Virus record (IMG/VR): IMGVR_UViG_3300038428_000729
Location: 1-30,961 of that record
Strand: one strand, 5' to 3'
From: a virus
Length of the DNA: 30,961 nt
The number at the start of each line of letters is the position of its first letter. Position 1 is the stretch's first letter. Shown here one piece after another: positions 8,931 to 30,961 of the stretch. Both the position numbers and the translations under genes were made by a program. The notes under the pieces are model-generated. The model did not search any database. It saw only the letters and a list, made by a program, of their open reading frames with translations, and was not told the origin of the DNA.

Positions 8931-10187
<1,257 letters not shown>

Positions 10188-10201
<14 letters not shown>

Positions 10202-10715: not shown

Positions 10716-10756
10716 GTTCTGCTCCTCTCCGTGGACCACAGTCACAGGTGCGCCAT

Positions 10757-11596
10757 CTAGCTGGCGATGGCCTTGCGAGGGCGCTTGGCCGCGGATGGCT
10801 GTGGCGTCAGTTGGGCGACCTCGACGGGCTTCTTCGCCCGCGCCAAGCTGGCCTTGAGGGCCTCCAGGATATCGGTCACCGGGGGAGGCGCCCATGTGAT
10901 CGCTCCCGGCTTCAACTCTTCGCCCCGGATCTTGGAGTCGGTCAAGGCCCGCATGCTCTCGCGGTAGTTATCCTTATAATTAGCCGGCTCGAAGTGGGCG
11001 GCCAAGGACTCGACCAGCAGACGGGCCAGTTCCAATTCCTGGGGTGTGACCCACTCAGTATCAGTGCGGAATTCCTCCAGCGCCCGGATTTCGTCGCGGT
11101 AGAACAGCGTGTGGAGCATCAGTCCGAAGCGGCCTGGCCGGAGCAGGACCAGGTGTTCGCGATTATGCATGGTCAACTGGGCGAGGGCGGCTTGGGCAGT
11201 GCGCCGCAGCGCTTCGTAGAGCAGCGTGTAGGGCTTCTCGCCGGCCCGTTCCGGGGCTACATAATAGGATGCGTCGAGATAGACCGGATCGACCTCCGCT
11301 TCGGGCACGAACTCCAGCACCTCCATCACGTGGGAACTGCGCGGAGAAATCTGGGCCAGTTCACCCTCCTCGACGACCACGTAGCGGTCCTTTTCGTACT
11401 CGTAGCCTTTGACCAGTTCGTTGCGCGCGACCGGCTGGTCTTCGGCCTGGCAGTACAGGACCTGTTTGACGCGCGAGTGATCGCACTGGTGGAGCTGGTT
11501 GAAACTGACGGCTTGGCTGCGCGCGGCGGCGTGGAGCTTGACGGGAATCGCGACTAGGCCGAAGGCGATGTGACCCTTCCAGATGCTGTTCGCCAT
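10757..11596 (-). CDS. ku: Ku DNA end-binding protein, unit A
   Basis: The 279-aa protein is a standard bacterial Ku. It begins MANSIWKGHIAFGLVAIPVKL, has the core strands (NQLHQCDHSRVKQVLYC, LVKGYEYEKDRYVVV) and LVESLAAHFEPANYKDNYRE near the end of the core. Its short Lys/Arg/Ala-rich tail (AAKRPRKAIAS) resembles the DNA-contacting extensions of other bacterial Ku proteins. Ku homodimers ring double-strand ends and recruit LigD for non-homologous end joining. No ligase gene is in the window, so host LigD would be needed. Its location inside a recombinase operon of a mobile element is unusual. The start is two bases after the DUF3489 stop, with GGGGAGGC inside the end of that gene as the ribosome binding site. 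Confidence 0.96.
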   Translation of the reverse strand: MANSIWKGHIAFGLVAIPVKLHAAARSQAVSFNQLHQCDHSRVKQVLYCQAEDQPVARNELVKGYEYEKDRYVVVEEGELAQISPRSSHVMEVLEFVPEAEVDPVYLDASYYVAPERAGEKPYTLLYEALRRTAQAALAQLTMHNREHLVLLRPGRFGLMLHTLFYRDEIRALEEFRTDTEWVTPQELELARLLVESLAAHFEPANYKDNYRESMRALTDSKIRGEELKPGAITWAPPPVTDILEALKASLARAKKPVEVAQLTPQPSAAKRPRKAIAS

Positions 11597-11598
11597 GG

Positions 11599-12219
11599 CT
11601 ATGCCTCCCCTCTGGCGATGCTGTAAACGCGGGCGCCGTCTGCGCGCTTGCTGGAAGTCACGGTAAGGCCCATCTTCTTTCCCAGGGTGCCGCTGATGAA
11701 ACCGCGGACACTGTGGGCCTGCCAGGAGGTGGCTTCCATGATCTCGCTGAGGGTGGCGCCCTTGGCCCGCTGGATCAGGGCCAGGACCGCGGCAGTCTTG
11801 CTGCCCTGACGTGCATCGACAGGCTTCGGCTGGGTGGCTTTCCTGGGCGCTTTGGTTGCCTTCTTCGCTCGGGTTGCCTTCTTGGTCGACTGGGCTTTAG
11901 AGGGCGCAACCCGGCGCGCCGGTTTGGCAGACGGGGCCTTCGTGGGGGCCTTCGGCTCGGGGTTTTCGCCCAGGGTCTGGATACGACTCCAGATCCGCCA
12001 GGCGGCGGCCTTGGCGCTCTGGAAACCCTTTACCGGCTCAACACCCGGCAGGCTGTTCCAGATTTCCACCAGGCGCTCGGGCGGCCAAGCGGAGGCCAGT
12101 TCGGCGAGTTGCTTCTGGCTGGTAAAGGGTTGGGAGCCGGTACCCACGGCTGCTTCGGCGTGGTCCGGCGTCGGGAACGCGGTGATGTTGTTGTCGTTGT
12201 CGATAGTGAGCGTTTTCAT
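11599..12219 (-). CDS. DUF3489 protein with C-terminal winged-helix, unit A
   Basis: The protein has about 206 aa. The N-terminal part (MKTLTIDNDNNITAF, then ELASAWPPERLVEIWNSLPG) is a small globular region. The middle (about 85-135) is a disordered linker rich in Lys, Ala and Pro, like a histone H1 tail. The C-terminal 70 residues are DUF3489: SKTAAVLALIQRAKGATLSEI, TSWQAHSVRGFISGTL and GLTVTSSKRADGARVY, a helix-turn-helix type DNA-binding fold. It is the first gene of the minus operon and stands directly behind the palindrome at 12237-12252, so it may regulate the operon. The ATG at 12219 is preferred over the GTG seven codons upstream. Confidence 0.88.
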   Translation of the reverse strand: MKTLTIDNDNNITAFPTPDHAEAAVGTGSQPFTSQKQLAELASAWPPERLVEIWNSLPGVEPVKGFQSAKAAAWRIWSRIQTLGENPEPKAPTKAPSAKPARRVAPSKAQSTKKATRAKKATKAPRKATQPKPVDARQGSKTAAVLALIQRAKGATLSEIMEATSWQAHSVRGFISGTLGKKMGLTVTSSKRADGARVYSIARGEA

Positions 12220-12236
12220 GTAAGTGGCTCTCTTTC

Positions 12237-12252
12237 TCACGGCTTACCGTGA
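12237..12252. promoter_or_regulatory. Palindrome upstream of the DUF3489-Ku operon, unit A
   Basis: TCACGG-CTTA-CCGTGA has perfect 6-bp arms. It lies 17 bp before the DUF3489 ATG on the minus strand, where an operator would be expected. The same arms are kept in unit B (21000-21015), where only one base of the central four differs. It could be the binding site of DUF3489 or the KorB-like protein. Confidence 0.5.
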
Positions 12253-12364
12253 CGCTCACATTCATCCCTCTGTTCGCGGACACAAGCAAGCGAAATCTGC
12301 TGGGAAATCGGAAGGTGACGGTGCGTTTAGGCACGACATCCGTGCAGGAATAGCGACGGGGGCG

Positions 12365-13825: not shown

Positions 13826-14070
13826 CGCGGTGTATCTGGATCCGAAACAAAACAGCCTCCATGGTGGAAGCGATGGAAGAGAGCGCGGAACTTCTCAAAC
13901 CCCGTTTTATATTCCCTCGCGCCGACGTGGGCGACGTGATGGTGGAGCAGTTGGAGTTTTCGCTCGACCACGGCGAGGCCTGTACGCCTGGCTGTTTGGA
14001 TTGCCAGCGCCTGGCCACGGTGTGCGCCGCGCTGCTGCTCAGGCCGTTCGAAGTGGGGCTCCGTAAATGA
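13822..14070 (+). CDS. Small hypothetical protein (82 aa) between DUF5681 and terminase
   Basis: From the GTG at 13822 the protein contains MEESAELLKPRFIFPRADVG and VMVEQLEFSLDHG, then a CTPGCLDC cluster of cysteines that could bind a metal. No family is recognised. Both ends show four-base start-stop overlaps: GTGA with DUF5681 and ATGA with the terminase. This places it firmly in the packaging operon. An internal ATG at 13861 is an alternative start and would remove only the poorly conserved first residues. It is absent from unit A. Confidence 0.65.
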   Translation: MTRCIWIRNKTASMVEAMEESAELLKPRFIFPRADVGDVMVEQLEFSLDHGEACTPGCLDCQRLATVCAALLLRPFEVGLRK

Positions 14071-15788
14071 GGGAGCCCACCCCGCGGGAAATTGACCAGG
14101 CGCTCGAAGGCTTTAAGGCACACGAGAAATTCTGCGGCCACCTGCAGATTAGGGACAAAGAGGGCGTAGTCGTTCCCTACCGCAGCTCGCCGGCCGGGCT
14201 GAAGCTGAACAGGGCGATTCGCAGGCTGGAGGACGCGCGCAAGCCGGTGCGCGTGTGTTGCCTGAAGGCCTCGCAGGTGTGGATGAGTAGCGCGGCCGCG
14301 ACGCAGGTTTTCCGCCGCGTTCTGTTCTTCGATGGGCGCCGCGCGCTGGTGCTGGCAGACAGCGACGCTCACGCCGACCTGGTTTTTCAGTACTACCAGC
14401 AATATGTCGTGTCGTACCGACACAACCCGTACGGGCGGGAGTTCAAGGGCGAAGTCCCGATGCCGCGGCTGGTCAATGACACGGAGCGGCACCTCCGGTT
14501 CGCGAACGCTTCTGAGATTCTGGTCGGCACCGCCTACAACGTCGATATCGGCCGCTCGGCGCCGTACAACTGGGCGCACCTGAGCGAGGCCGCTTTCTAC
14601 CGGGACATGGGCACGCTCATGACCGGGCTCATGCAGCGGATTCCAAACTCGCCCGACTCGGGAATCATTGTCGAGTCCACCGCCAACGGGATGGGCGGCG
14701 ACTTCTACGACCTGTGCATGCGGGCGATGGATCCGCGCAAAGCCGGCGGCTGGGCCTTCGTGTTCTTCGGTTGGTGGGAGCACCCCGAGTATCGCCTGGC
14801 GGCGTGGCCAGGCTTCAAGATTTCGCGCGAGGAGCTGGTCGAGCAACAGAAGTATAACCTCCGCGTCGATCAGATCGTCTGGCGCCGCCAGCAGATCGAG
14901 ACCGCCTGCGAAGGCAAGATCGAGCGGTTTCGCCAGGAGTTTCCCGGCAACCCGCAGGAAGCATTCCAATCGAGCGGCCGGACTATCTTCGACATGGCGG
15001 CGGTGTCGCGGATGCCCCTGATTCAGGACGCGCCCAGAGGACGCCTGGAAGTCGTCGAGGTGGGGATCGAAAAGCGCGTCCGATTTCGGCAAAGCGGGGA
15101 CCGCCGCGGCGAGCTGGTGATTTACCAGATGCCGCGCAAGGGCGGTCACTACATCATCGGCGTGGATCACGCCGAGGGCATCGACCCGAAAGCGCGCACC
15201 GGCGCCGGCGGATCGGATCCGGATTATTGCAGCGCGACGGTGATAGACGCCGACACCGGCGAAGAGCACGCCAAGCTCAAAGAACGCTACGAGCCCGCGC
15301 CGTGGGCCGAACGCGTGCACGCACTGGGCCGGGTTTACGAGTGGGCCTTCCTGGTGCCAGAACAGAAGGCAGTCGGCAAAGCTGTAATCGGCGAGCTGCT
15401 CAAGCTGAATTACCCACTGGAGCTGATCTATTCCAAGCAGCGCGATCCGAGCGACCGCAAGACACCGCTCTTGCAGGAGCTGGGTTTCGACACGAACACG
15501 GTTTTTAGGCCGGTGCTGATCGCAGGCCTGGAGCGGGCGTTGCGCGAGGGTTCCATCCGGCTGCACGATCCGGAGACCATCGCGGAGCTACAGCGGTTTG
15601 TGCGCAAGCCGAACGGGCGCGAAGAGGGCATCGGTCACGACGACGACGTTTTCGGAGTGGCGCTGGCTGTCGAGGGTCTGCCATACGCGCACCGCGCATT
15701 CGCCTACCGCGAGTCACTGAAGGAAGACCACGAGCGATGGAAGCCGGTCAGGTACGGGCGCAAAGGAGCGAACGACGATGACGACTAG
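14067..15788 (+). CDS. Phage terminase large subunit, unit B
   Basis: The 573-aa protein has the terminase order. An N-terminal ATPase carries a degenerate Walker A (LKASQVWMSS, about 66-75), a Walker B-like HLSEAAFY (about 171-178) and the coupling motif ESTANG (about 203-208). Then comes PGNPQEAFQSSGRTIFD, and a C-terminal RNase H-like nuclease with IIGVDHAEG (about 363-371) and HDDDVFGVALAVEG near the end. Terminases cut concatemeric phage DNA and pump it into capsids using ATP. The Walker A lacks the usual glycine (Trp in its place), so ATPase activity is uncertain. No portal, protease or capsid gene follows; the next genes are a 49-residue reading frame and the ParB-methyltransferase. 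The start overlaps the upstream stop. Confidence 0.9.
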   Translation: MREPTPREIDQALEGFKAHEKFCGHLQIRDKEGVVVPYRSSPAGLKLNRAIRRLEDARKPVRVCCLKASQVWMSSAAATQVFRRVLFFDGRRALVLADSDAHADLVFQYYQQYVVSYRHNPYGREFKGEVPMPRLVNDTERHLRFANASEILVGTAYNVDIGRSAPYNWAHLSEAAFYRDMGTLMTGLMQRIPNSPDSGIIVESTANGMGGDFYDLCMRAMDPRKAGGWAFVFFGWWEHPEYRLAAWPGFKISREELVEQQKYNLRVDQIVWRRQQIETACEGKIERFRQEFPGNPQEAFQSSGRTIFDMAAVSRMPLIQDAPRGRLEVVEVGIEKRVRFRQSGDRRGELVIYQMPRKGGHYIIGVDHAEGIDPKARTGAGGSDPDYCSATVIDADTGEEHAKLKERYEPAPWAERVHALGRVYEWAFLVPEQKAVGKAVIGELLKLNYPLELIYSKQRDPSDRKTPLLQELGFDTNTVFRPVLIAGLERALREGSIRLHDPETIAELQRFVRKPNGREEGIGHDDDVFGVALAVEGLPYAHRAFAYRESLKEDHERWKPVRYGRKGANDDDD

Positions 15789-17300: not shown

Positions 17301-17689
17301 TCAACGGTCCGCGATCTTCTGAAACAGGCGCCGCTGCTCGTCCCAGTCGATCCGGCTGACGATGCACCGCAGGTTTCGCTCATTGAGGCCCTGGACCAGC
17401 GGCAGGAAGAGGATTTGTTCCTGAATCTCCGGAGCCAGGTCGAGCAGCTTCATGATCTGGGTCATACGGGCCCGTGTCACCCCGCCGAGGCGGGCCAGTT
17501 CCGCATAATCGCGAATGGTTCCATCCCGCAACAGTCCCTCAAACCGAATCGCGAGCGCCATCAGCCGGGCGATCCGGGGAATCGGACCGTCAGCCGCTTC
17601 GCCATGGAGAGGCTGTCGATCGCAGCCGGCTTGGTTTTCCCGCCGGCTCTGTCTGAAGTCCAGCGCGTAGGTGACCTCCTGGTGGCCGC

Positions 17690-17693
<4 letters not shown>
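17301..17693 (-). CDS. KorB-like HTH protein, unit B
   Basis: The 130-aa protein begins MSGHQEVTYALDF and contains the helix-turn-helix core ALAIRFEGLLRDGTIRDYAE, TRARMTQIMKLLDLAPEIQ. It ends RIDWDEQRRLFQKIADR, which looks like the natural C-terminus because the relic at 7860 ends at a similar point. ATG at 17693 overlaps the recombinase TGA. A DNA-binding accessory or regulatory role next to the recombinase is likely from context. The 3' end coincides with the end of the long direct repeat. Confidence 0.78.
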
Positions 17694-18950
<1,257 letters not shown>

Positions 18951-18964
<14 letters not shown>

Positions 18965-19481
18965 GCCGCCGCTCCTTCCGCTGCCCGCCCGCGGGACGCG
19001 TCAGCCCGAAGAATGCCAGACCGTTCCAGCGGGTACCCGTGACCGCCACGGCGATCGCGCTCAGCGAGGGATAATGCCGGTTCTCATAGCGGAATCCTTC
19101 CGCCAGGACCTCGACCAGAATGTTCCGTCCTTTCCATTTCCGGCTGAGCAACGCACCCGGCAAGGGCAGGCGGCTATCCGGTTCCCGGCGATTCCGGTTC
19201 CCGCGAGTCGTCCGGACGGGTTCGCCGCCCACGGTAAAGAAGTCGCGGGGCGCCACCATTCGCAAGTCAGCATCTCTCGCGATCTGCTGCGCCCGCGTGC
19301 GAGCCCGTCCGGAGAGATCTCCTTCGGCCAAGGCCTGCAAACGCCAGGCGATCCGCCGAAAAAGATGTTCCCGGTGCCGGGATCGCGCTTCTTCCTGAAA
19401 TACTTCCCGGTACTTCCCGCGCAGAGCCGCCAAACTCGCTCTGCGCAGGTTCTCCATTTCCATCAATACGGTCGTGTCCAT
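18951..19481 (-). CDS. DUF2924 protein, unit B
   Basis: This is the counterpart of the 10188-10715 gene (176 aa), with REHLFRRIAWRLQALAEGDL, LPGALLSRKWKGRNILVEVL and YPSLSAIAVAVTGTRW. The ATG at 19481 has GAGAGGAAAAGAAC before it and fixes the start for both copies. The C-terminal residues differ from copy A (PAGGQRKERRHAEK), where the reading overlaps the recombinase start. Function is unknown; it is a constant companion of the recombinase. Confidence 0.85.
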
Positions 19482-19513
19482 GTTCTTTTCCTCTCCGTGG
19501 CCGTCGTATCGGT

Positions 19514-20359
19514 CTAACTGGCGATCGCCTTCCGGGTGCGCTTGGGGGCCGGGGCCGCCTGTGGTGGCTGCTGGGCGACCAGAACGGGCTTCTTCGCCCG
19601 GGCCAGACTGGCCTTGAGCGCCTCCAGGATATCGGTCACCGGGGGAGGTGCCCACATGATCGCTCCCGGTTGCTTCCGCTCTTCGCCCCGGATCTTGGCA
19701 TCAATCAAGGCCCGCACACTCTCGCGGTAGTTATCCTTATAATTAGCCGGCTCGAAGTGGGCGGCCAAGGACTCCACCAGCAGACGGGCCAGTTCCAGTT
19801 CCTGGGGTGTGACCCACTCAGTCTCGGTGCGGAATTCGTCCAGCGCACGGATTTCGTCGCGGTAGAACAGCGTGTGGAGCATCAGTCCGAATCGGCCTGG
19901 CCGCAGCAGGACCAGGTGTTCGCGATTATGCATGGTCAACTGGGCGAGGGCCGCTTGGCCGGTGCGCCGCAGCGCTTCGTAGAGTAGCGTGTAGGGCTTC
20001 TCGCCGGCCCGTTCCGGGGCTACATAATAGGATGCGTCGAGATAGACCGGATCGACCTCCGCTTCGGGTACGAACTCCAGCACCTCCATCACGCGGGAAC
20101 TGCGCGGCGTGATCTGCTCCAGTTCAGCCTCCTCGACGACCACGTAGCGGTCCTTTTCGTACTCGTAGCCTTTGACCAGTTCGTTGCGCGCGACCGGCTG
20201 GTCTTCGGCCTGGCAGTACAGAACCTGTTTGACGCGCGAGTGATCGCACTGGTGGAGCTGATTGAAACTGACCGCTTGGGAGCGCGCGGCGGCGTGGAGC
20301 TTAACCGGAATCGCCACCAGGCCGAACGCGATGTGACCCTTCCAGATGCTGTTCGCCAT
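19514..20359 (-). CDS. ku: Ku DNA end-binding protein, unit B
   Basis: The 281-aa protein is nearly identical to the unit A Ku through the DNA-binding core. It differs mainly in the last 70 residues (LIDAKIRGEERKQPGAIMW; PVLVAQQPPQAAPAPKRTRK), where the basic tail lies. Tail changes in bacterial Ku affect DNA threading and LigD contact, so the two could differ in activity. Both frames are intact, which suggests selection on both or a recent copying event. The start codon follows the DUF3489 stop by two bases. Confidence 0.96.
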   Translation of the reverse strand: MANSIWKGHIAFGLVAIPVKLHAAARSQAVSFNQLHQCDHSRVKQVLYCQAEDQPVARNELVKGYEYEKDRYVVVEEAELEQITPRSSRVMEVLEFVPEAEVDPVYLDASYYVAPERAGEKPYTLLYEALRRTGQAALAQLTMHNREHLVLLRPGRFGLMLHTLFYRDEIRALDEFRTETEWVTPQELELARLLVESLAAHFEPANYKDNYRESVRALIDAKIRGEERKQPGAIMWAPPPVTDILEALKASLARAKKPVLVAQQPPQAAPAPKRTRKAIAS

Positions 20360-20361
20360 GG

Positions 20362-20982
20362 CTATGCCTCCCCTCTGGCGATGCTGTACACGCGGGCGCC
20401 GTCTGTGCGCTTGGTGGAAGTCACGGTAAGTCCCATCTTCTTTCCCAAGGTTCCGCTGATGAACCCACGGACGCTGTGGGCCTGCCAGGATGTGGCTTGC
20501 ATGATCTCGCTGATTGTGGCGCCCTTGGTCCGTTGGACCAGGGCCAGGACCGCGGCAGTCTTGCTGCCCTGACGTGCATCGACAGGCTTCGGCTTGGTGG
20601 CTTTCCTGGGCGCTTTGGTTGCCTTCTTCGCTCTGGTTGCCTTCTTGGTCGACTGGGGCTTAGAGGGCGCAACACGGCGCGCCGGTTTGGCAGACGGGGC
20701 CTTCGTGGGGACCTGCGGCTTGGGGTTTTCGCCCAGCGCCTGGATACGATTCCAGATCCGCCCGGCTGCCGCTTGGGCGCTCTTGAAACTCTTAACCGGC
20801 TCGACACCGGGCAGACTGTTCCAGATTTCTACCAATCGTTCGGCCGGCCACGTGGCGGCCAGTTCAACGAGTTGCTTCTGGCTGGTAAAGGGTTGGGAGC
20901 CGGCACCCACGGCTGCTTCGGCGTGGTCCGGCGTCGGGAACGCGGTGATGTTGTTGTCGTTGTCGATAGTGAACGTTTTCAT
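20362..20982 (-). CDS. DUF3489 protein with C-terminal winged-helix, unit B
   Basis: This is the counterpart of the 11599-12219 gene, with the same layout: MKTFTIDNDNNITAF N-terminus, Lys/Ala/Pro-rich linker, and the DUF3489 domain (SKTAAVLALVQRTKGATISEI, SWQAHSVRGFISGTLGKKMG). Differences lie mainly in the N-terminal helical region and linker, and the DNA-binding end is nearly unchanged. It is the first gene of the unit B minus operon, behind the palindrome at 21000-21015. Confidence 0.88.
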   Translation of the reverse strand: MKTFTIDNDNNITAFPTPDHAEAAVGAGSQPFTSQKQLVELAATWPAERLVEIWNSLPGVEPVKSFKSAQAAAGRIWNRIQALGENPKPQVPTKAPSAKPARRVAPSKPQSTKKATRAKKATKAPRKATKPKPVDARQGSKTAAVLALVQRTKGATISEIMQATSWQAHSVRGFISGTLGKKMGLTVTSTKRTDGARVYSIARGEA

Positions 20983-20999
20983 GTAAGTGGCTCTCTTTC

Positions 21000-21015
21000 T
21001 CACGGTTTACCGTGA
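21000..21015. promoter_or_regulatory. Palindrome upstream of the DUF3489-Ku operon, unit B
   Basis: TCACGG-TTTA-CCGTGA keeps both 6-bp arms of the unit A palindrome, with one changed base in the centre. It sits at the same distance from the DUF3489 start. Confidence 0.5.
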
Positions 21016-21313
21016 CGCTCACATTCATGGCTCTGTTCGCGGAGACAAGCAAGTCAATTCTGCTTGCAACGGGAGGGCGATGGAAACACGATGGGCCGAG
21101 TAGAAGGCCGAGAAATGTCAGAGAGTCTCAGCCTGTCAACCGGAAGGCTCTGAGTTCGAGTTCTATTTGCCGAGCCACACCTTTCCGCTACGAAATTCTG
21201 GACACCTCTGGTTGACAGACCATTCGCGTCTCTCGCGAAAATGGCCAATATTTCGCGGACTTGGCTCGCTCATGGAGAATGGCGCGGCCTTGCGCGTGGC
21301 TGCATTCATGTTT

Positions 21314-21625: not shown

Positions 21626-21693
21626 GATCAGGTTATGTGCCGTCCCCTTGTCTTTGAGCGCTTCATCCGGTTGCCAGCATGCCTCGAGCCTTG

Positions 21694-21811
21694 ACCTCCG
21701 CCGTCAACGCGCCGCCCTGGCTCAATGGGGAACAGCAACTCCACCGATTCGCCCGGCTGAATGCCGCCGAAACCGGGCGGCCTGGGCAGCGTCAGTTTCG
21801 GCTCCATACCT
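21694..21811 (-). pseudogene. Fragment of a third copy of the exported-protein gene
   Basis: The stretch reads GMEPKLTLPRPPGFGGIQPG and ESVELLFP on the minus strand and closely matches parts of the two exported paralogues (about 24149-24265 and 27521-27637). An extra G in the run after LLFP breaks the frame. Only about 118 bp survive, abutted on both sides by unrelated sequence, so this is a short gene-conversion or deletion scar. Confidence 0.75.
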
Positions 21812-21856
21812 AAAAACTTGACACTTCCAGAAAGAACCCAGTTAGACTCAGACGCC

Positions 21857-22627: not shown

Positions 22628-24496
22628 TTAGTTGTTTTTTACGGTGGCAGTCGTACAGGTCGTCGTAATCGTCGCGGAAAAAATATTGTAACCGTTAACC
22701 GAAATTGTTTGGGCGGCTACGCTCGTGCAGCCGGGGCCACCATTCTCACAGCAGCTGTCGCACTTTCCGTAGGTGTCGGTGATATCGGTGACTGAACCCG
22801 TGCCGGTCGTCACACCTTTTCCCGCACAGTTGTTGCTGGTCAGGTTGATCGATTCTGTGACCGTGGCATCATTGATCCCGTAATCCTGGAAGTAGGTTGT
22901 AAACTGGTCGTACACGTGGTAGTCCCTCTGGAACTGATTTTCACTGTATGTGCAGCTAGTACCGGCCTGCACGTTGCACCCGCTTACCGGGTTCGTTAGG
23001 CACGGCAAGGTGCATGGGATTGAGGCGATCGGGGTTACGTCTTGTGCTACATACAAACTCGTTGGCTTGTGAACTGTGATCGCTCCGGACTTGGCAGTGG
23101 CGGGCTGCCCGTTCACGGTGTAAGTAACCTGTATCGTCGTATCACCCAGGGCGCTGCTCGCGTTAGCCGATGTGTAGCTGGTACCCGACCCGTCCTGGGT
23201 TGGGGTCAGGGTAATGGTATTCTTGTTTGTGCTCCAACTGAAGGACCCACCGGTCGGCTGTGCGGTAGTTGTGCAACTTCCCGTCACTGTAGATTTGGGT
23301 GCCGTCGAGCCAAGCGAAAGATCCGTGGTATCGCAGCTAATGGTCACCTGGGTATCCGCGCAGGATTCACTGTCTTCCGCCACCATATTCGTCTTGCTGA
23401 CGAGCGTTGTTGCAGCTTGGCTCCCCGCGATCGTACATCCTAATGTGGGTATGTAGGAATAGCTTAACCCCGTGATCGTCGCCGAGGATGCCGAGGAACT
23501 CGCAGTTGTGAAGAACGCAGGAGTGCACGTGGGCACAGAAATCGCACCGGGCGGACCGCTGACACCGCAGGCGCCGGTCGCGGCAACGGACAGCGTGCCG
23601 GCTTTAGACGTCGAAGATCCCTGCCTGATTCCTCCGCCGCGAAGTATATCAGCATACCCTGCTACACCCAACGATTGCCCAGGATAGTGGCACGAGAACC
23701 CGTCCATCCTTACCTCGCTCGTGCTCGGCTTCACGTTAGCGTGCCTGCCGTTAGCCACTGCCGTCGGTTCGGCGTAGTTCGCGATCCACCCTGCCCGCTG
23801 TGCATGCCGCTGGAGCGAAGCGGCCCGCTCCTCCACGTACCCCAGCAGCGACGCCCAGTTCGCCGCCGTGGTTTGCGCCAGCAGCGAAGCCAGCGCCCTC
23901 CGCGCCGCCATTCGGCCCGCCACCGTCGCCGCGTCTCCCTGCTCGTTGGGGTCCTGCGGCAGAACCCGAAGCATCTCGGCCCTCTCCCCTTCGCGCTCTG
24001 CCGGGGACCGGTAGTGCGACGGGTCTTCCCGCATCACCAGGGCCCAGCGCTCCCACTCCGATGCATACGCCAGCCGCTGCCGGAACATGGATGCAATCTC
24101 GTTTTCGTCGCCGACCGCCGTGCGGTCTTCCAGGATCACCGCGTTGACCTCCGCTGTCAGCGCGCCGCCCTGATTCAATGGGAACAGCAACTCCACCGAT
24201 TCGCCCGGCTGAATGCCGCCGAAACCGGGCGGCCTGGACAGCGTCAGTTTCGGCTCCATACCTACAGAATAGACGAACTCCTGCGTGTATTGTTGGGAGG
24301 ACGCCAGTAGCCCGCAGCCAGTGACTTTCTGTTGGCCCACGTTCTTGACGACCACCCGCATCTTGGAGGTTGCGGGGTCGGCCGTGATTTTCTGCACCGC
24401 GAGAAAAGCGGACGTGGTTTGCGTCTGTGCCATGGCGGGCATCCCTAACGATCCCGCCGAAGCAACCACCAGGCAAATGATCTGAGATATTCGCAT
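22628..24496 (-). CDS. Exported protein, paralogue 2 (conserved N-terminal half, variable C-terminus)
   Basis: The protein has 622 aa with signal peptide MRISQIICLVVASAGSLG, ending near MAQ. Residues 30-125 are a beta domain (MRVVVKNVGQQKVTGCGLL; GIQPGESVELLFP; ALTAEVNAVILEDRTAVGDE) like CARDB-type adhesion folds. Next comes a helical segment (GRMAARRALASLLAQTTAAN) and a Ser/Thr/Cys-rich stretch. To about residue 385 it is near identical to the 25966-27870 product. The rest is unrelated: an Ig-like region (TTIQVTYTVNGQPATAKSGA) and a Cys-rich end (DTYGKCDSCCENGGPGC). GAGAGGAGCAT precedes the ATG at 24496; the track-length frame upstream is not homologous coding sequence. It is probably secreted or surface-bound; the partner is unknown. 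Confidence 0.8.
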   Translation of the reverse strand: MRISQIICLVVASAGSLGMPAMAQTQTTSAFLAVQKITADPATSKMRVVVKNVGQQKVTGCGLLASSQQYTQEFVYSVGMEPKLTLSRPPGFGGIQPGESVELLFPLNQGGALTAEVNAVILEDRTAVGDENEIASMFRQRLAYASEWERWALVMREDPSHYRSPAEREGERAEMLRVLPQDPNEQGDAATVAGRMAARRALASLLAQTTAANWASLLGYVEERAASLQRHAQRAGWIANYAEPTAVANGRHANVKPSTSEVRMDGFSCHYPGQSLGVAGYADILRGGGIRQGSSTSKAGTLSVAATGACGVSGPPGAISVPTCTPAFFTTASSSASSATITGLSYSYIPTLGCTIAGSQAATTLVSKTNMVAEDSESCADTQVTISCDTTDLSLGSTAPKSTVTGSCTTTAQPTGGSFSWSTNKNTITLTPTQDGSGTSYTSANASSALGDTTIQVTYTVNGQPATAKSGAITVHKPTSLYVAQDVTPIASIPCTLPCLTNPVSGCNVQAGTSCTYSENQFQRDYHVYDQFTTYFQDYGINDATVTESINLTSNNCAGKGVTTGTGSVTDITDTYGKCDSCCENGGPGCTSVAAQTISVNGYNIFSATITTTCTTATVKNN

Positions 24497-24655
24497 ATGC
24501 TCCTCTCGATCGTTCACTTCGCCACTGATCGAACCGATCCGGGCCAGCTGCGTGTGGCCAAGACCCAGCCGCGGCCAAATTCCCCGAACATCGTCGTGGA
24601 TCGATGGGTTCGCCGCTTAGGGCAAGACAAGACAGGTTGGCATCGAGCCTCAGGA

Positions 24656-24817
24656 CTAATCCCCATCAGGGACCTCCTCATAATCCTCGCAATCCCCCTC
24701 GCACATTCCCTCGCAGCCTGACTCGCAGTACACCTCACCGTCGTCGGGCACTCCGATTGACAGGTCTCGCAGGTCGGCCTGGCACTCGAGGTGGCAGTTT
24801 TCAGAAGAAGCGCTCAT
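24656..24817 (-). CDS. Mini Cys-rich protein, deletion derivative (53 aa)
   Basis: The start, MSASSENCH, and the end, EVYCESGCEGMCEGDCEDYE, match the ends of the 298-aa Cys-rich protein (MSGSSENSH and EVYCESGCEGMCEEGCEDYE). Almost all of the repeat region and the Tat signal are missing. A middle piece (ADLRDLSIGVPDD) reads CETCQSEC in another frame, so two small frameshifts have occurred and cancelled out. Without a signal it would stay in the cytoplasm. Its ribosome binding site is weaker than that of the parent gene. It is most likely a decaying duplicate, though a small functional peptide cannot be excluded. Confidence 0.5.
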   Translation of the reverse strand: MSASSENCHLECQADLRDLSIGVPDDGEVYCESGCEGMCEGDCEDYEEVPDGD

Positions 24818-24834
24818 CGTTGCCCCCCGGCTCC

Positions 24835-24940
24835 TCAACCCGCTGTTGCCGACCGCTCCTACCCTGCGCCCACTGGCGGCCCAGGCATTTTCAGGCTGGG
24901 CAGGGAAGCCATTCGCGCCCAGAAGTGCGCCAGACTGAGC
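24835..24940 (-). pseudogene. Relic of the Sel1-like gene 3' end
   Basis: The minus strand reads FWARMASLPSLKMPGPPVGA, a stop, then ERSATAG and a stop. The intact gene at 28948-30003 ends FWARKASLPSLNKPGPPVRA, G, QERSATAG. The in-frame stop and the missing upstream part show it is dead. It marks the left-hand join of the duplicated block: the copy begins inside the Sel1-like gene, just past the TolB-like gene stop at 24950. Confidence 0.8.
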
Positions 24941-24949
24941 GACGACAAG

Positions 24950-25969
24950 TCATTGATTGGGCCGTGCAACGCCCTCGCGCCCGCCCAACTTCTTTACCAC
25001 GTCCTCCATACTCTGCTGATCGTCGCGGATGCTCTGGCTGGTGTGCGCAACCCTCTCCAATATCACGGAGGACTCGGGGTCCAAGGGCATGTACACGCTG
25101 CGAGTTGGATCAACGACCAAAGCCGTACCGCCTAGTCCCACAGCTACACGGATTCCCATCCATGTCAGCGACGCGTCGTCCTTCGTGTAGCTTGGCACTG
25201 GTACGGTCATTACTTCCCCCCGGATTGAGATAGTCGTAAGCGCTATTTGGCCGGACTGTAGTCGTCTCTCTAAGATCGCCACCCGCTGACTGTCCTCAGA
25301 CCACACCGGCCCCGCCTCCAGGTGTATTGGTGCCCCCCGGACGCCCGCGTAGCTCAGCGTTCCGTCATCAATCTCAACGCGGCCAATACTGTCGTCCCAG
25401 GTTCCCATAGACACAGGGAAGCGGTAGGCAACATGTTTCCCATCCGGCGACGCAGTGAACGAGCCACATTCCCCGTCCCGTTCGCTAAACGTCTTACCGG
25501 TATCGAGATCGAGCTCAAAGCTCGCGCAGTTCCGCGGGCCAAAGCTGCCCTCAAACCGGACGAACCGGTTCGATAGCCACTCAACATTTTCGATCGCTCG
25601 AATAAGCTCGGGATTGGTGGAGTTGTCGGGTGGCCTAAGCGAAACTTCACTGGTCACCTGGCCTGTAAGGTCGCTGATGACCAGCTTCGGCCACGACGGC
25701 ATCACGAATTTAGCAAACTCTTTGTCCCCTTTCTCGCCGGGCACGAGGTACGAGATGCGCCGTCCGTCCGGCAGCCAGCGAAGGTCTCGTTTGACCCGTG
25801 GATCGCCCGTTAGCCTCGTAACGTTTCCGCTGGCTCGGTCCACCAAAATAACTTCCGTGCCTTTCAGGGCGGCTATCATGGTCCAAGACTCGGCTGAGTA
25901 GGGGCCCCCGCAGACGACGAAAGCGCTAATTGCAAGACTGGATATGGTCTTCTTCGATGCGGTTTTCAT
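24950..25969 (-). CDS. Exported TolB-like beta-propeller protein (339 aa)
   Basis: From the ATG at 25969 the protein has a signal peptide (MKTASKKTISSLAISAFVVCG, ending near YSA-E), followed by PD40/WD40-like blades: DPRVKRDLRWLPDGRRISYL, GSFTASPDGKHVAYRF, AGPVWSEDSQRVAILER. This is the TolB-type propeller pattern, with repeated W/S-PDG/EDS-xRIAY signatures. Such proteins act in the cell envelope as binding platforms; no enzyme motif is seen. The start overlaps the stop of the 25966-27870 gene as ATGA, so the pair is translationally coupled and probably works together. In the duplicated block this position is instead taken by the STN-like gene. Confidence 0.78.
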   Translation of the reverse strand: MKTASKKTISSLAISAFVVCGGPYSAESWTMIAALKGTEVILVDRASGNVTRLTGDPRVKRDLRWLPDGRRISYLVPGEKGDKEFAKFVMPSWPKLVISDLTGQVTSEVSLRPPDNSTNPELIRAIENVEWLSNRFVRFEGSFGPRNCASFELDLDTGKTFSERDGECGSFTASPDGKHVAYRFPVSMGTWDDSIGRVEIDDGTLSYAGVRGAPIHLEAGPVWSEDSQRVAILERRLQSGQIALTTISIRGEVMTVPVPSYTKDDASLTWMGIRVAVGLGGTALVVDPTRSVYMPLDPESSVILERVAHTSQSIRDDQQSMEDVVKKLGGREGVARPNQ

Positions 25970-27870
25970 TGAACTGCACCATTGGGGCAAGCGGGGCCCC
26001 CGGGCGAACAAGTGGCGACACCCATCGGGTTTGTGTAGGGCTTGCACACGCTTACGCCGGCACCCATGAACAAGTCGAGGCGGTATCCTGTGATAGCTTG
26101 GCCCGTATCGGTGGCTTGCAGGTTAGTGCCGACACCGTCCACCGTTACGGTCCAGCCTTGGCCCCTTGGAATGATCGAGAAATCTCGCGCTACTGTTTGG
26201 CCGGCGATCAGGGGACCGTCAGCACCAGTAGGAGTGTTCTTGGGGGGAAGATAATAGGTTCCTGAGTTTACGTTGTATTGGATCGCCGTACCGTTTGCAG
26301 AGAAACCGGATCCCTGCAACTTAACCGCAGAAAGAAAGGCGCTGCAAAAGGTCCCAGTAATGTTCGGAGGATTCGTCTGGCTCTGGCCGTTTGAGCACTG
26401 TCCGGCGCCATTCATGTAGTCCGTCTCTAAGGCGTTCATGTAGCACGACATTCCAAAGGCCGGAACGGTGAATGAATCGAGCGGGGATGAGATTCCAGAG
26501 GGCGATGAATAGCTGACTTCAACTTGGCCTAGGCCCCCTGGGGTTGGGGTGCCGCCGCTGCTAGGATCCGTGAACGTCAACGTCGCCGTTCCGTTGCCAT
26601 TGTCGTTCATTGAGAGCCCCGGTATCGTCCCTCCATTGTTGTAGATTTGCGAGTAGAATTTCCCGTTCGGAGGTGAACCCGAGGCGGCAACCTGCATAAG
26701 GGACTGGCGGGACAGACTGATGGTCACTGCGGCGCAGGATTCGCTGTCTTCCGCCACTACGTTCGTCTTGCTGACGAGCGTCGTTGCAGCTTGGCTCCCC
26801 GCGATCATACATCCTAATGCGGGTATGTAGGAGTAGCTTAACCCCGTGATCGTCGCCGAGGATGCCGAGGAGCTCGCAGTTGTGAAGAACGCAGGAGTGC
26901 ACGTGGGCACAGAAATCGCACCGCGCGGACCGCTGACACCGCAGGCGCCGGTCGCGGCAGCGGACAGCGTGCCGGCTTTGGACGTCGAAGATCCCTGCGT
27001 GGACCCTCCGCTGCGAAGTATATCAGCATACCCCGCTGCGCCCAACGGTTGCCCGGGATAGCGGCACGAGAATTCGTCCATCCTGACCTCGCTCGTGCTC
27101 GGCTTCACGTTAGCGTGCCTGCCCTTGGCCACTGCCGTCGGTTCGGCATAGCTTGCGATCCAGCCGGCCCGCTGTGCATGCTGGCCGAGCGAAACGGCCC
27201 GCTCCTCAACATACTCCAGCAGCGACGCCCGGTTCGCCGCCGTCGTTTGCGTCAGCAGCGAAGCCAGCGCCCTCCGCGCCGCCATTCGGCCCGCCACCGT
27301 CGCCGCGTCTCCCCGCTCGTTGGGGTCCTGCGGCAGAACCCGAAGCATCTCGGCCCTCTCCCCTTCGCGCATTGCCGGGGGCCGGTAGTGCGTCGGATCT
27401 TCCCGCATTACCAGGGCCCAACGCCCCCACTCCGACGCGTACGCCAGCCGCTGCCGGAACATGGATGCAATCTCGTTTTCGTCGCCTACCGCCGTGCGGT
27501 CTTCCAGGATCACCGCGTTGACCTCCGCCGTCAGCGCGCCGCCCTGGCTCAATGGGAACAGCAACTCCACCGATTCGCCCGGCTGAATGCCGCCGAAACC
27601 GGGCGGCCTGGACAGCGTCAGTTTCGGCTCCATACCTACAGAATAGACGAACTCCTGCGTGTACTGTTGGGAGGACGCCAGCAACCCGCAGGCAGTGACT
27701 TTCTGTTGGCCCACGTTCTTGACGACCACCCGCATCTTGGAGGTTGTGGGGTCGCTGGTGATTTTCTGCACCGCGAGAAAGGCGGACGGGGTTTGCGCTC
27801 GTGCGATAGCGGGCGTCCCTAATGATCCCGCCGCCGCAACCACCAGGCAGATGATCTGAGATATTCGCAT
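25966..27870 (-). CDS. Exported protein, paralogue 1, with C-terminal 3D-like domain
   Basis: The protein has 634 aa. The signal peptide (MRISQIICLVVAAAGSLG) and the next 385 residues are near identical to paralogue 2, including the CARDB-like beta domain and the Ser/Cys-rich stretch. The C-terminus differs: a beta domain (NGTATLTFTDPSSGGTPTPG), then a region with RDFSIIPRGQGWTVTVDGVG and DTGQAITGYRLDLFMG at about 585-605. The last is the signature of the 3D domain, a double-psi barrel of MltA/RlpA-like proteins that act on peptidoglycan. A cell-wall role is thus plausible but unproven. GAGAGGAACAT precedes the ATG at 27870. It lies 159 bp after the Cys-rich gene and overlaps the TolB-like gene. 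Confidence 0.82.
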   Translation of the reverse strand: MRISQIICLVVAAAGSLGTPAIARAQTPSAFLAVQKITSDPTTSKMRVVVKNVGQQKVTACGLLASSQQYTQEFVYSVGMEPKLTLSRPPGFGGIQPGESVELLFPLSQGGALTAEVNAVILEDRTAVGDENEIASMFRQRLAYASEWGRWALVMREDPTHYRPPAMREGERAEMLRVLPQDPNERGDAATVAGRMAARRALASLLTQTTAANRASLLEYVEERAVSLGQHAQRAGWIASYAEPTAVAKGRHANVKPSTSEVRMDEFSCRYPGQPLGAAGYADILRSGGSTQGSSTSKAGTLSAAATGACGVSGPRGAISVPTCTPAFFTTASSSASSATITGLSYSYIPALGCMIAGSQAATTLVSKTNVVAEDSESCAAVTISLSRQSLMQVAASGSPPNGKFYSQIYNNGGTIPGLSMNDNGNGTATLTFTDPSSGGTPTPGGLGQVEVSYSSPSGISSPLDSFTVPAFGMSCYMNALETDYMNGAGQCSNGQSQTNPPNITGTFCSAFLSAVKLQGSGFSANGTAIQYNVNSGTYYLPPKNTPTGADGPLIAGQTVARDFSIIPRGQGWTVTVDGVGTNLQATDTGQAITGYRLDLFMGAGVSVCKPYTNPMGVATCSPGGPACPNGAVQ

Positions 27871-28029
27871 ATGTTCCTCTCGATCGTTCACTTCGCCACT
27901 GATCGAACCGATCCGGGCCGGCTGCGTGTGGCCAGGACCCACCCCCGGCCAAATTCCCCGACCATCGCTCGTGGATCGATGGGTTCGCCGCTTAGGGCAA
28001 GACAAGACAGGTTGGCATGACGCTCAGGA

Positions 28030-28926
28030 CTAATCCTCCTCCTCGGCCTCCTCATAATCCTCACAACCCTCCTCGCACATTCCCTCGCAGCCCGACTCGC
28101 AGTACACCTCACAGCCGTCGTCACAACCCCCGCCGCCCTGATCGGAAACCTCGCAACCGTCCTCGCACGCTACTTCGCAACCGGACTCACAGTAGAGCTC
28201 GCATGTCGTCTCGCAATCCTGACATACCGACTCACAAGGGCTCTGGCACGCGTACTCGCACGCAGTCTCACAGACTTGACATGCCACTTCACAAGCCGAC
28301 TGGCATGCGTTTTGGCACGGACTGCCCTGGCACGCCTGGCAGGACAATTCGCAAGCGCTCTGGCACGCCAACTGACACGAGTCCTGACACGATGACTGGC
28401 AGGTAGACTGGCATGCCAGCTCGCATGCAGTCTGGCAAGTCGCCTCGCATGTTGTTTGGCACGACTCCTGACACACGGCTTGGCATGATGATTCGCAGGG
28501 GTTTTGGCACGCTAGCTCACATGCGCTCTCGCACGACAACTGACACGTGGCTTGACAGCCAAGTTCACAGCGGCTCTGACAGGACGACTGGCAGGCAGGA
28601 TCCTCCTGGCAGCCGGTCTGACAGCTATGCTGGCAGGCGTCCTGGCAGAGCTGGCAGCCGACCTGGCAGGCGCCCTCGCACTCCGATTGACAGCTCTCGC
28701 ACTCCGACTGGCACTCGAGCTCGCATGAGTCCTGACAGGAAACTTCGCACGTGTCCTCACAAGTAGTCCCGCAGCAGGTCTGCGCTTCAGCCAGGGACGC
28801 GATAAATGGCGCTCCCAGGGCCGCGAGCTTGAACAGCGCCCGGCGCGATCGACGCGCTGTCCCAGGCGCCGTTTCCACCTTCTCGCCGTCTGGCTCACGG
28901 TGGGAATTCTCAGAAGAACCGCTCAT
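28030..28926 (-). CDS. Tat-signal protein with 60 cysteines in C-[Q/E]-x-x repeats (298 aa)
   Basis: Residues 27-33 read SRRALFK, followed by a hydrophobic stretch (LAALGAPFIASLAEA) and a likely cleavage near 48, which is a twin-arginine export signal. From residue 51 to 288 there are 60 cysteines, almost always four apart, each followed by Gln or Glu (CQSSCQSRCELGCQATC). Single-residue phase shifts give CxxC at CESC, CQLC, CQAC, CQVC and CQDC. The end is acidic (EDYEEAEEED). No known enzyme fold fits. It may be the precursor of a radical SAM-modified peptide, given the enzyme at 30456, or a high-capacity metal-binding protein like Tat-exported copper storage proteins, which use CxxxC helices. 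GGAGGAGACAACG precedes the ATG. It is the second gene after the Sel1-like gene. Confidence 0.85.
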   Translation of the reverse strand: MSGSSENSHREPDGEKVETAPGTARRSRRALFKLAALGAPFIASLAEAQTCCGTTCEDTCEVSCQDSCELECQSECESCQSECEGACQVGCQLCQDACQHSCQTGCQEDPACQSSCQSRCELGCQATCQLSCESACELACQNPCESSCQAVCQESCQTTCEATCQTACELACQSTCQSSCQDSCQLACQSACELSCQACQGSPCQNACQSACEVACQVCETACEYACQSPCESVCQDCETTCELYCESGCEVACEDGCEVSDQGGGGCDDGCEVYCESGCEGMCEEGCEDYEEAEEED

Positions 28927-28947
28927 CGTTGTCTCCTCCCCCGCTTC

Positions 28948-30003
28948 TTAGCCCGCTGTTGCCGACCGCTCCTGTCCTGCGCGCACTGGCGGCCCCGGTT
29001 TGTTCAGACTGGGCAGAGAAGCCTTTCGCGCCCAGAATTGCGCCAACTCAACGGACGCAGCCGCGCCCACGCCGCCTGCATAGGCGGTTGCCAGGGCGTT
29101 TTGAGCTGATTTTTGTCCCGTAGTCGCGGAACGATGCAGCAGCTTGAGGGCGCGTTGTGGGTTGGCTTGAAATCCCGACTTGCCTTGCTGGGCTTGAACG
29201 CCATTCAGGTACAACGCCACGCTGTCGCCCTTTTCGCCCGCCTTCCGGAGCCGCAACTTCAGTTCCGCAACCTTCGCCGGATGCTTCATTCTCGAATATA
29301 GGTCGGCGAGAGAAATCATTCCGATGGTCTCGCCGGCCGAGGCTGCCTCTTGGAATAAAGAAATCGCCTGGGCATAATTACCAGCATTGAGGAGCAGCTT
29401 TCCCCAGCGGGTCTTCGCCAGGGCGAAGTTCGGCGCGGCCGCTGCGTACAGTGGTTGCGCCTTGTCCGGCCTGGGCTTGTACCCGGCAAGTCCGCGCTCG
29501 TACACTCGCCCCAGCAGGGTCATTCCCACTGGATCGCCGGCCTTCGCGGCCTTGACCAGTCCGCGGAAGCTGGCGGAGCTTCGCGCCGCAGCGCCAGGCT
29601 TAATACGGGCCGCCGCGTCCAGATACCCGAGCCAAGCGGCAGCGGCCAGCGAGCTTTGCGACGCCACCAGGAAGTACGACCGCGCGCGCGGGATATCCAC
29701 GATTCCCGCCATTCCGGTGTAATAGGCAAACCCCACGCGGAGGGTAGACGCGAGGTCGCCTTGCCGCGCCCGTTCCATATCGCCGGCGAGCGACGTTGCG
29801 GCAAAAAGATCATCCGGTTTGAAATTGCCTTGGCAGCATGGCGTACTGGCCGGACCTTTGCTGGACTGACCCATTAGGGGTTGCAGGGCCAGAGGGGCCA
29901 GCAGAAGCGATTTCACAACGTTGCGCCGCGACAGGGGCGGGCACCGGTCTGGCGCCTTAGCGCAGGATCGCCCCACCCCGGCCGTTTCCGACTTTCCGAT
30001 CAT
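28948..30003 (-). CDS. Tat-exported Sel1/TPR-like repeat protein (351 aa)
   Basis: The N-terminus has SRRNVVK at 25-31 and a hydrophobic segment (SLLLAPLALQPLMG), a twin-arginine signal. Residues 75-340 are helical repeats with Sel1-like features (GDLASTLRVGFAYYTGMAG; AAKAGDPVGMTLLGRVYERG; SAGETIGMISLADLYSRM; TGQKSAQNALATAYAGGVG). Sel1 repeats mediate protein-protein contacts. It starts 22 bp upstream of the Cys-rich gene, which also carries a Tat signal, so the two may be exported together and interact. GAAGGAGAGAAAG before the ATG at 30003 decided the start; an ATG at 30015 is less likely. It is divergent from the radical SAM gene. Confidence 0.82.
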   Translation of the reverse strand: MIGKSETAGVGRSCAKAPDRCPPLSRRNVVKSLLLAPLALQPLMGQSSKGPASTPCCQGNFKPDDLFAATSLAGDMERARQGDLASTLRVGFAYYTGMAGIVDIPRARSYFLVASQSSLAAAAWLGYLDAAARIKPGAAARSSASFRGLVKAAKAGDPVGMTLLGRVYERGLAGYKPRPDKAQPLYAAAAPNFALAKTRWGKLLLNAGNYAQAISLFQEAASAGETIGMISLADLYSRMKHPAKVAELKLRLRKAGEKGDSVALYLNGVQAQQGKSGFQANPQRALKLLHRSATTGQKSAQNALATAYAGGVGAAASVELAQFWARKASLPSLNKPGPPVRAGQERSATAG

Positions 30004-30253
30004 CTTTCTCTCCTTCATCAGCACACCTGAACAAGGAGGCCGTTAGAAAACATGTTATGCGGGTCAATCTCGCAAAACAATATTCAAAATTCACTTTTTT
30101 GAATGATCGAAGTGGCAGAACGCAACGCTCGGAGATCATACCCAGGCGCCTCTGCTGGCAGTAATTGGGCCGTGGTGCCAAGTAGGTGTATATCATTACG
30201 TATCATGCGCGCTGCCATCTGAAAATTATGTCCGGTCCTCCGACCTCTATTCC
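30004..30253. other. Divergent intergenic region
   Basis: No supported gene lies between the Sel1-like gene and the radical SAM gene. The A/T content rises near 30060-30110 (CAAAACAATATTCAAAATTC), as expected for minus-strand promoters, but no clear pair of boxes was identified there. Confidence 0.35.
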
Positions 30254-30283
30254 TTGACAGGGACAATCGGTTCCACGCATAAT
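30254..30283 (+). promoter_or_regulatory. Candidate sigma70-type promoter for the radical SAM gene
   Basis: TTGACA at 30254-30259 is followed after 18 bp by CATAAT at 30278-30283. The -35 box is perfect and the -10 has one mismatch to TATAAT. It points toward the radical SAM gene, leaving a leader of roughly 165 bases, long enough for leader regulation. Confidence 0.45.
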
Positions 30284-30455
30284 TCCTTCGTGGATGCAAC
30301 AGAGATCGTGTAGTACTAACCTTACGAAAGCCTGTGCCGGCCGGCGCACATCGCTCCGGAGTAGTCAGCGGCGTGGCGCTTACAGACTTTGCGGGCGGAC
30401 GATGTCTTCGAGAGACGGATTCGCTTAAGCTATTTAAGGTTGTAAAGGAGGATAT

Positions 30456-30961
30456 ATGAGCGAGTTGAGCGCACACGGGATGCCGGCTCTGGAGTATGGC
30501 ATTCAACCCTTGCCCTTTAGCAACCGGGGCTACTACATCTATGTCACGGAAGCATGCAATCTTCGGTGCAACTACTGCTTCGTGAGTGACAAGACGAACA
30601 GCCGCCACCTGACGCCGGACATGGCCGACAAGGTCCTGGCGTTTGTAAAAGCCGACGCCTGCAACCTAAAGCAGACGTACATCCACTTCTTTGGCGGGGA
30701 GCCGCTGATCCGACCGTCCGTTGTGGACTACCTGGCGGGCCAACTCCGTGCGTGGTCGAAGGAGCGGAATTTCAAGCTGAAACTCGGGATCACAACGAAC
30801 GGGACGCTCCTCACGAGGCAGAACTGTGAAATCCTCAAGCGTCACGACATTGGCGTTCAGCTTAGCCTCGACGGCAGCAAGGAGGGCAATAACGTTCATC
30901 GTCAGCTCATGGGGGGTGCGCAACGTGGACTGCGTCCCGCGGGTGCCTTTGATCTGGTTCA
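30456..30961 (+). CDS. Radical SAM enzyme, 5' part (runs off the window)
   Basis: The ATG at 30456 has a near-perfect ribosome binding site, AAAGGAGGATAT. The 168 visible residues carry the radical SAM cluster motif CNLRCNYC (Cys 34, 38, 41), the SAM-binding FFGGEP (about 78-83), TTNGTLLT and QLSLDGS. This fits the peptide- and sulfatase-modifying branch that usually ends in a SPASM domain; that end is outside the window. These enzymes bind a 4Fe-4S cluster and make a 5'-deoxyadenosyl radical to form thioether or other links in a protein or peptide. The 298-aa Cys-rich protein, about 1.5 kb away and divergent, is the obvious candidate substrate. The frame stays open to the last base. Confidence 0.92.
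   Translation, partial: MSELSAHGMPALEYGIQPLPFSNRGYYIYVTEACNLRCNYCFVSDKTNSRHLTPDMADKVLAFVKADACNLKQTYIHFFGGEPLIRPSVVDYLAGQLRAWSKERNFKLKLGITTNGTLLTRQNCEILKRHDIGVQLSLDGSKEGNNVHRQLMGGAQRGLRPAGAFDLV

What the first reader, a model, noticed from the sequence alone, without database searches (positions are those of the whole stretch)
28030..30961. Candidate modified-peptide system: 60-Cys Tat protein with a divergent radical SAM enzyme
Seen directly: a protein with 60 cysteines in a C-[Q/E]-x-x lattice, a twin-arginine signal, and a divergent radical SAM gene with CxxxCxxC and GGEP motifs. From family knowledge, SPASM-type radical SAM enzymes often act on Cys-rich precursors encoded nearby; I recall a NCBI family named for Cys-every-fifth peptides (CefA/CefB), but the spacing here is four. 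Inference: the enzyme modifies the protein in the cytoplasm and Tat then exports the folded product with the Sel1-like partner. Tat export would suit a pre-modified substrate.
Basis: partly seen in the sequence, partly recalled or inferred. Interest (0 to 1): 0.82.

Follow-up and report, generated by a model that had tools for sequence, protein, structure and literature searches.

The report
Tat-signal cysteine-lattice protein with radical-SAM neighbour
A bacterial protein made mostly of a repeating cysteine pattern sits beside a radical enzyme gene of a class that stitches cysteines to other residues; across many unrelated viruses and microbes the same pattern is almost always found next to such an enzyme, so this is probably a protein that is cross-linked inside the cell and then exported folded.

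Summary
Window 28030-28926(-) encodes 298 aa with 60 Cys; 50 of 59 Cys-Cys steps are exactly 4 and 57 of 60 Cys are followed by Gln or Glu. The N-terminus carries SRRALFK plus a hydrophobic stretch. A second SRR-signal gene (Sel1/TPR-like) lies directly upstream, and a divergent radical SAM gene starts at 30456 and is cut by the contig end.
That this kind of lattice is a radical-SAM substrate gains strong independent support. Of 28 IMG/VR records with genuine C[QE]xx-lattice ORFs, 24 carry a PapB-like radical SAM gene (17 within 300 bp), against 1 of 36 control records; in all 4 exceptions the lattice ORF runs off the record end. A Phycisphaerales genome has the same layout (Tat signal, 144-Cys lattice, PapB/CXXX-type enzyme).
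The pairing in this window is weaker: the enzyme is a 168-aa fragment outside any well-supported lattice clade, and the only close homologue of the Cys protein (Acidobacteria MAG) lacks both such an enzyme on its contig and a Tat signal.
Closest known kind: NCBIfam CXXX-repeat radical-SAM systems and PapB ranthipeptide maturases; no family cut-off is reached. Verdict: new variant of a known, biochemically untested kind.

The parts
28030..28926 (-). Cys-lattice protein, 298 aa, 60 Cys, C-[Q/E]-x-x repeats, N-terminal twin-arginine signal
   Evidence: homologue L255:5286-5816(-)
28948..30024 (-). Sel1/TPR-like secreted protein, 358 aa, own SRRNVVK twin-arginine signal; 21 bp upstream of the Cys gene, same strand
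30456..30961 (+). 5' part (168 aa) of a radical SAM enzyme, CxxxCxxC and GGEP motifs, cut by the contig end; nearest PapB / Cys-thioether maturases
30025..30455 (.). 431-bp divergent intergenic region with the Shine-Dalgarno AAAGGAGG of the radical SAM gene
24656..24838 (-). decayed copy of the Cys gene: start and C-terminal tail kept, lattice core lost
25966..27957 (-). secreted protein of the TVAGRMAARRAL type downstream of the Cys gene; homologue also lies near the Cys gene in L255

Best explanation
A radical-SAM modified, Tat-exported Cys-lattice protein. In the cytoplasm a PapB-like radical SAM enzyme abstracts hydrogen from side chains in the lattice, most likely Glu/Gln next to the cysteines, and closes many Cys-sulfur-to-carbon thioethers along the 240-residue lattice. 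This turns it into a rigid rod without free thiols. Because the product is already folded and cross-linked, it leaves by Tat rather than Sec, probably with the Sel1/TPR-like protein encoded directly upstream, and acts in the periplasm or at the cell surface. Shown: the lattice, the twin-arginine motifs, the enzyme fragment, and the lattice/radical-SAM linkage in many other records. Inferred: that this enzyme acts on this protein, the bond chemistry, the order of modification and export, and the role of the Sel1-like partner.
For: Linkage: 24 of 28 lattice-bearing virus records hold a PapB-like radical SAM gene, against 1 weak hit in 36 control records (Fisher p = 2e-12). 17 of the 24 lie within 300 bp of the lattice ORF and 22 within 3 kb. 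The 4 exceptions all have the lattice ORF running off the record end. Six of eight genomic lattice loci also have one within 3 kb, including Planctomycetota, Bacillota and a Bathyarchaeota MAG. Lattice-linked enzymes fall into several separate starred clades, so the linkage is not one inherited block. Same layout with Tat: L257 has a TPR protein, a Tat 144-Cys lattice protein, a PapB/TIGR04115-type enzyme (270 and 164 bits) and a TIGR04119 CXXX-maturase-like protein; L380 has a Tat Cys-rich protein beside a PapB-like enzyme. Acceptor hint: outside the stretches that the search pattern fixed, Glu/Gln still follows 672 of 939 lattice cysteines. PapB joins Cys to Asp or Glu and tolerates Cys-X(0-6)-Asp (PMC9413430).
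Against: The window enzyme is a fragment, is not in the lattice operon, and sits with non-lattice enzymes on the tree (weak support). The L255 homologue has no radical SAM of this type on its 16-kb contig (the one there is of another type), and its genome holds only distant PapB-like enzymes. Half of the +1 residues are Gln, which the PapB paper does not mention as an acceptor. Lattices with Ser/Gly/Thr at +1 also sit beside such enzymes, so Q/E need not be the acceptor.
Confidence: 0.6

Rival explanations
1. Unmodified metal-binding protein: a Tat-exported thiolate store (for example for Cu(I)), with cysteines lining helices, working like Csp1; the radical SAM gene is a chance neighbour.
For: Csp1-type copper stores are Tat-exported (PMC7558416) and use CXXXC motifs in helices (own knowledge). 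The single-sequence AlphaFold model of the window protein is long helices, mean pLDDT 72.
Against: No Pfam family matches at E<=1. Foldseek of the model finds no Csp or other match at E<=0.001. It does not explain why lattices of this kind sit beside radical SAM genes in 24 of 28 virus records, or the fixed Q/E after Cys.
Confidence: 0.17
2. Lattice modified by an unlinked enzyme; the adjacent radical SAM gene serves another, unseen substrate encoded beyond the contig end.
For: Divergent transcription and contig end; tree position next to non-lattice enzymes; L255 homologue without a linked enzyme of this type while its genome has PapB-like enzymes on another contig beside a Tat WD40 protein with a CTCNC tail.
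Against: Close linkage is the rule elsewhere. The L255 copy looks 5'-truncated by a palindromic repeat, so it may be dead.
Confidence: 0.17
3. Lattice held by disulfides only: an exported, oxidised Cys-rich structural protein.
For: Cys-rich exported proteins are commonly disulfide-bonded (general knowledge).
Against: Odd for a Tat substrate that would have to fold in the reducing cytoplasm; does not explain the radical SAM linkage of viral lattices, most of which show no twin-arginine signal by eye.
Confidence: 0.06

Closest known systems
NCBIfam CXXX-repeat radical SAM systems (TIGR04114, TIGR04115, TIGR04117, TIGR04119)
   Same: Cys every fourth residue over many repeats; paired with a radical SAM enzyme; L257 in the same layout hits TIGR04115 (164 bits) and TIGR04119 (49 bits); viral lattice L054 hits TIGR04117 (29 bits) and L047 passes TIGR04114 (22.3 against 20)
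   Different: Window target scores 16 bits against a TIGR04117 cut-off of 50. It carries a twin-arginine signal, is three times the length of the 98-position model, and has a Sel1-like operon partner. No paper in the library mentions these accessions.
PapB / PapA ranthipeptides (NF047865)
   Same: Best NCBIfam match of the window enzyme (112.7 bits over 126 residues) and of most of the lattice-linked enzymes scanned
   Different: Full-length lattice enzymes score 120-300 bits, below the 340 cut-off. PapA is a peptide with six CX3D/E motifs; here about 57 C[Q/E] units, half of them with Gln
CefA/CefB (NF038107, Cys-every-fifth)
   Same: Cys-lattice peptide with SPASM-type enzyme; window enzyme hits CefB with 82 bits
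   Different: Spacing is four, not five; score far below the 600-bit cut-off
QhpD/PeaB quinohemoprotein amine dehydrogenase maturase (TIGR03906)
   Same: Modifies a Cys-rich protein subunit, not a small peptide; 33% identity to the window fragment over 145 aa
   Different: Substrate QhpC has a few defined Cys-Asp/Glu links (own knowledge), no lattice; no amine dehydrogenase genes seen in the window
Csp1 copper storage proteins
   Same: Tat-exported, CXXXC-rich (PMC7558416; CXXXC use in helices from own knowledge)
   Different: No family or fold match; no radical SAM partner known

Membership tests
NCBIfam CXXX-repeat radical SAM system | target with Cys at every fourth residue | tested here: met
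   50 of 59 steps are 4
NCBIfam CXXX-repeat radical SAM system | target over the TIGR04117 cut-off (50 bits) | tested here: not met
   16 bits, E 0.0098
NCBIfam CXXX-repeat radical SAM system | enzyme over the TIGR04115 cut-off (350 bits) | not testable with these tools
   only 168 aa of the enzyme lie in the window
NCBIfam CXXX-repeat radical SAM system | TIGR04119 CXXX maturase nearby | tested here: inconclusive
   none among the window proteins scanned, but the contig ends inside the enzyme gene; present in L257
PapB ranthipeptide maturase | radical SAM core with CxxxCxxC | tested here: met
PapB ranthipeptide maturase | score over 340 bits, SPASM domain | not testable with these tools
   gene cut at base 30961
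PapB ranthipeptide substrate | Cys-X3-Asp/Glu motifs | tested here: not met
   Q/E sits at +1 (57 of 60), so mostly CX0 or CX4 relative to Cys; PapB itself tolerates n = 0-6 (PMC9413430)
CefA/CefB | Cys at every fifth residue | tested here: not met
   one step of 5 in 59
Csp1 copper storage | family or four-helix-bundle fold match | tested here: not met
   the fold test used a single-sequence model of moderate confidence
Tat substrate | SRRxFLK-like motif, hydrophobic stretch, AxA-like site | tested here: met
   SRRALFK...LAEA|QT read directly
Tat substrate | match to a Tat-signal HMM | tested here: not met
   no TIGR01409 or Pfam Tat hit at E<=1

The most novel reading that the evidence does not exclude
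The window encodes a protein-scale poly-thioether rod: dozens of Cys-to-Gln/Glu side-chain thioethers, with Gln as a new acceptor, closed in the cytoplasm and exported folded through Tat. It would be one branch of a widespread lattice/radical-SAM class that also modifies tail-like phage proteins.
Probability: 0.3. Interest if true: 0.85.

Novelty: new variant of a known kind. Interest (0 to 1): 0.62.

Why it matters
Radical SAM cross-linking is known on small peptides and a few enzyme subunits. A linkage between long Cys lattices and PapB-like enzymes in unrelated phages, bacteria and an archaeal MAG points to cross-linking of whole structural proteins. The Tat-signal variant would show how such a product leaves the cell, and makes a clean experimental test possible: expected loss of about 2 Da per bond and no alkylatable thiols.

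Tried and rejected
Single-protein searches for relatives found nothing. Sulfatase activator: clearly weaker than PapB/SCIFF matches. Csp fold: no match. The CR5 (L283) Ser/Gly lattice ORFs were dropped as probably not genes: none of the annotated neighbours that I translated beside the radical SAM pair in CR5 or SPN3US is Cys-rich. Simple-sequence matches of the lattice pattern (more than half of the hits) were set aside by unit diversity, and some of them served as controls. In Acidobacteriota only 1 of 396 genomes has a run of seven units. In Planctomycetota 12 of 294 have five: one is the Tat lattice of L257, several are evident simple repeats, and the rest were not followed.

Full report
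What is there. The window is a 30,961-base IMG/VR record. Phage-type genes (terminase 14067-15788, ParB/methylase-type genes, recombinases; named from their sequence) fill about 4-21 kb. The finding lies in the last 3 kb, among secreted-protein genes that look like host flank. On the minus strand come a Sel1/TPR-like gene (28948-30024), then after 21 bp the Cys gene (28030-28926), then a secreted protein gene (25966-27957). On the plus strand a radical SAM gene starts at 30456 and is cut at the contig end.

The Cys protein. It has 298 aa and 60 Cys. Fifty of 59 steps are 4, and the residue after Cys is Q or E in 57 of 60 cases, also where the step is 3, so the unit is the C-[Q/E] pair. The lattice pattern has no chance matches in shuffled sequence. 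It is not a random open frame: a homologue in an Acidobacteria MAG (L255:5286-5816, -) shares 88 of 141 aligned residues including irregular steps, while third codon positions differ most (41/31/71). The secreted TVAGRMAARRAL protein is also found near it in L255.

Duplication. A 1.39-kb block (26732-28120) recurs at 23358-24746 with 93% identity, and 150 bp around the Sel1/Cys junction recur at 24790-24936. The copy keeps the start and tail of the Cys gene (24656-24838) and a decayed Sel1 end, but has lost the lattice. The Sel1 and Cys genes were therefore already neighbours when the block was copied.

Is the lattice a radical-SAM substrate? I scanned viral contigs for six C[QE]xx units, kept long ORFs with diverse units, and searched the full records for PapB-like radical SAM genes. 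24 of 28 have one; all 4 exceptions have the lattice ORF cut by the record end. Simple-repeat matches from the same scan served as controls: 1 weak hit in 36 (p = 2e-12). Gaps are 3-300 bp in 17 of 24. These controls are not matched for virus type, which is a caveat, but near-zero gaps are hard to explain otherwise. A scan for Cxxx without the Q/E condition turned up Ser/Gly/Thr-type lattices next to radical SAM genes (L286, L306, L310, L367), so the residue after Cys differs between branches.

Tat-signal relatives. In the Phycisphaerales genome CP070678 (G002), L257 has a TPR protein, a twin-arginine protein with 144 Cys, an enzyme scoring 270 bits with PapB and 164 with TIGR04115, and a SPASM protein with a TIGR04119 CXXX-maturase part. 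Another locus of that genome has a twin-arginine Cys-rich protein beside a PapB-like enzyme (L380), and a third has five PapB-like enzymes in a row near a Tat protein (L379). So Tat signal plus Cys-rich protein plus such an enzyme is a recurring theme.

The window enzyme. Its 168 aa match PapB best (112.7 bits over 126 residues). The best solved relative is 5wgg (CteB by own knowledge), E 4e-17, against 2e-9 for sulfatase maturases. On a tree of 34 radical SAM cores it falls outside the starred lattice clades, with weak support. That leaves room for a different substrate.

Mechanism. PapB links Cys to Asp C-beta or Glu C-gamma and tolerates Cys-X(0-6)-Asp, n = 0 and 6 incompletely (PMC9413430). 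By analogy I expect Cys-to-Glu/Gln side-chain thioethers; Gln would be new. Tat accepts folded proteins (own knowledge), so modification before export is consistent, but not shown.

Membership. The target fails the TIGR04117 cut-off and the enzyme cannot be scored in full, so I do not file the pair as a member of any family. It works like the CXXX-repeat and PapB systems with about 0.6 confidence.

Literature. Searches of the open-access library found no paper on the TIGR accessions, on radical SAM with Tat and Cys-rich targets, or on ranthipeptides with phage tails. The library lacks most subscription journals, so this is not proof of novelty.

Noticed in passing
L091, L097, L054, L114, L041, L087, L090, L111, L125 and others (viral and genomic loci): Phage or phage-like proteins with long C[QE]xx lattices close to PapB-like radical SAM genes; L125 matches tail protein / central tail fibre J PHROGs. 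A virus-encoded protein-modification class that seems little described.
   Followed up: partly
L286:5644-7035, L306:3130-3975, L310:1627-2604, L367:894-1784: Cxxx lattices with Ser/Gly/Thr instead of Gln/Glu after Cys, with a radical SAM gene in the same locus, mostly adjacent.
   Followed up: partly
L224:1105-2898 (Bathyarchaeota MAG): Archaeal lattice ORF with 63 Cys, 367 bp from a PapB-like radical SAM gene.
   Followed up: partly
L379:1863-13306 and L380:6161-7951 (Phycisphaerales CP070678): Five PapB-like radical SAM genes in series near a Tat protein; elsewhere in the genome a Tat Cys-rich protein beside another.
   Followed up: partly
L256:4787-10339 (Acidobacteria MAG G001): Three radical SAM genes followed by a Tat-signal WD40-like protein ending in CTCNCVPGTGCSCVAVCSC.
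   Followed up: no
window 8541-12301 and 17313-21064: A 3.7-kb duplication (89% identical) with recombinase and Ku-like genes (named by eye) on both sides of the terminase segment.
   Followed up: no
window 21688-21812, 24141-24264, 27515-27638: A 125-bp stretch present three times, marking a decayed array of the secreted TVAGRMAARRAL gene.
   Followed up: no
Salmonella phage SPN3US 140024-142139, Cronobacter phage CR5 132830-134978: Jumbo phages carry two adjacent radical SAM genes; none of the annotated neighbours that I translated is Cys-rich, so their substrate is unknown.
   Followed up: partly
L255:5728-5869: A palindromic repeat covers the 5' end of the Acidobacteria Cys-lattice homologue, which lacks a Tat signal, so that copy may be truncated.
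   Followed up: partly
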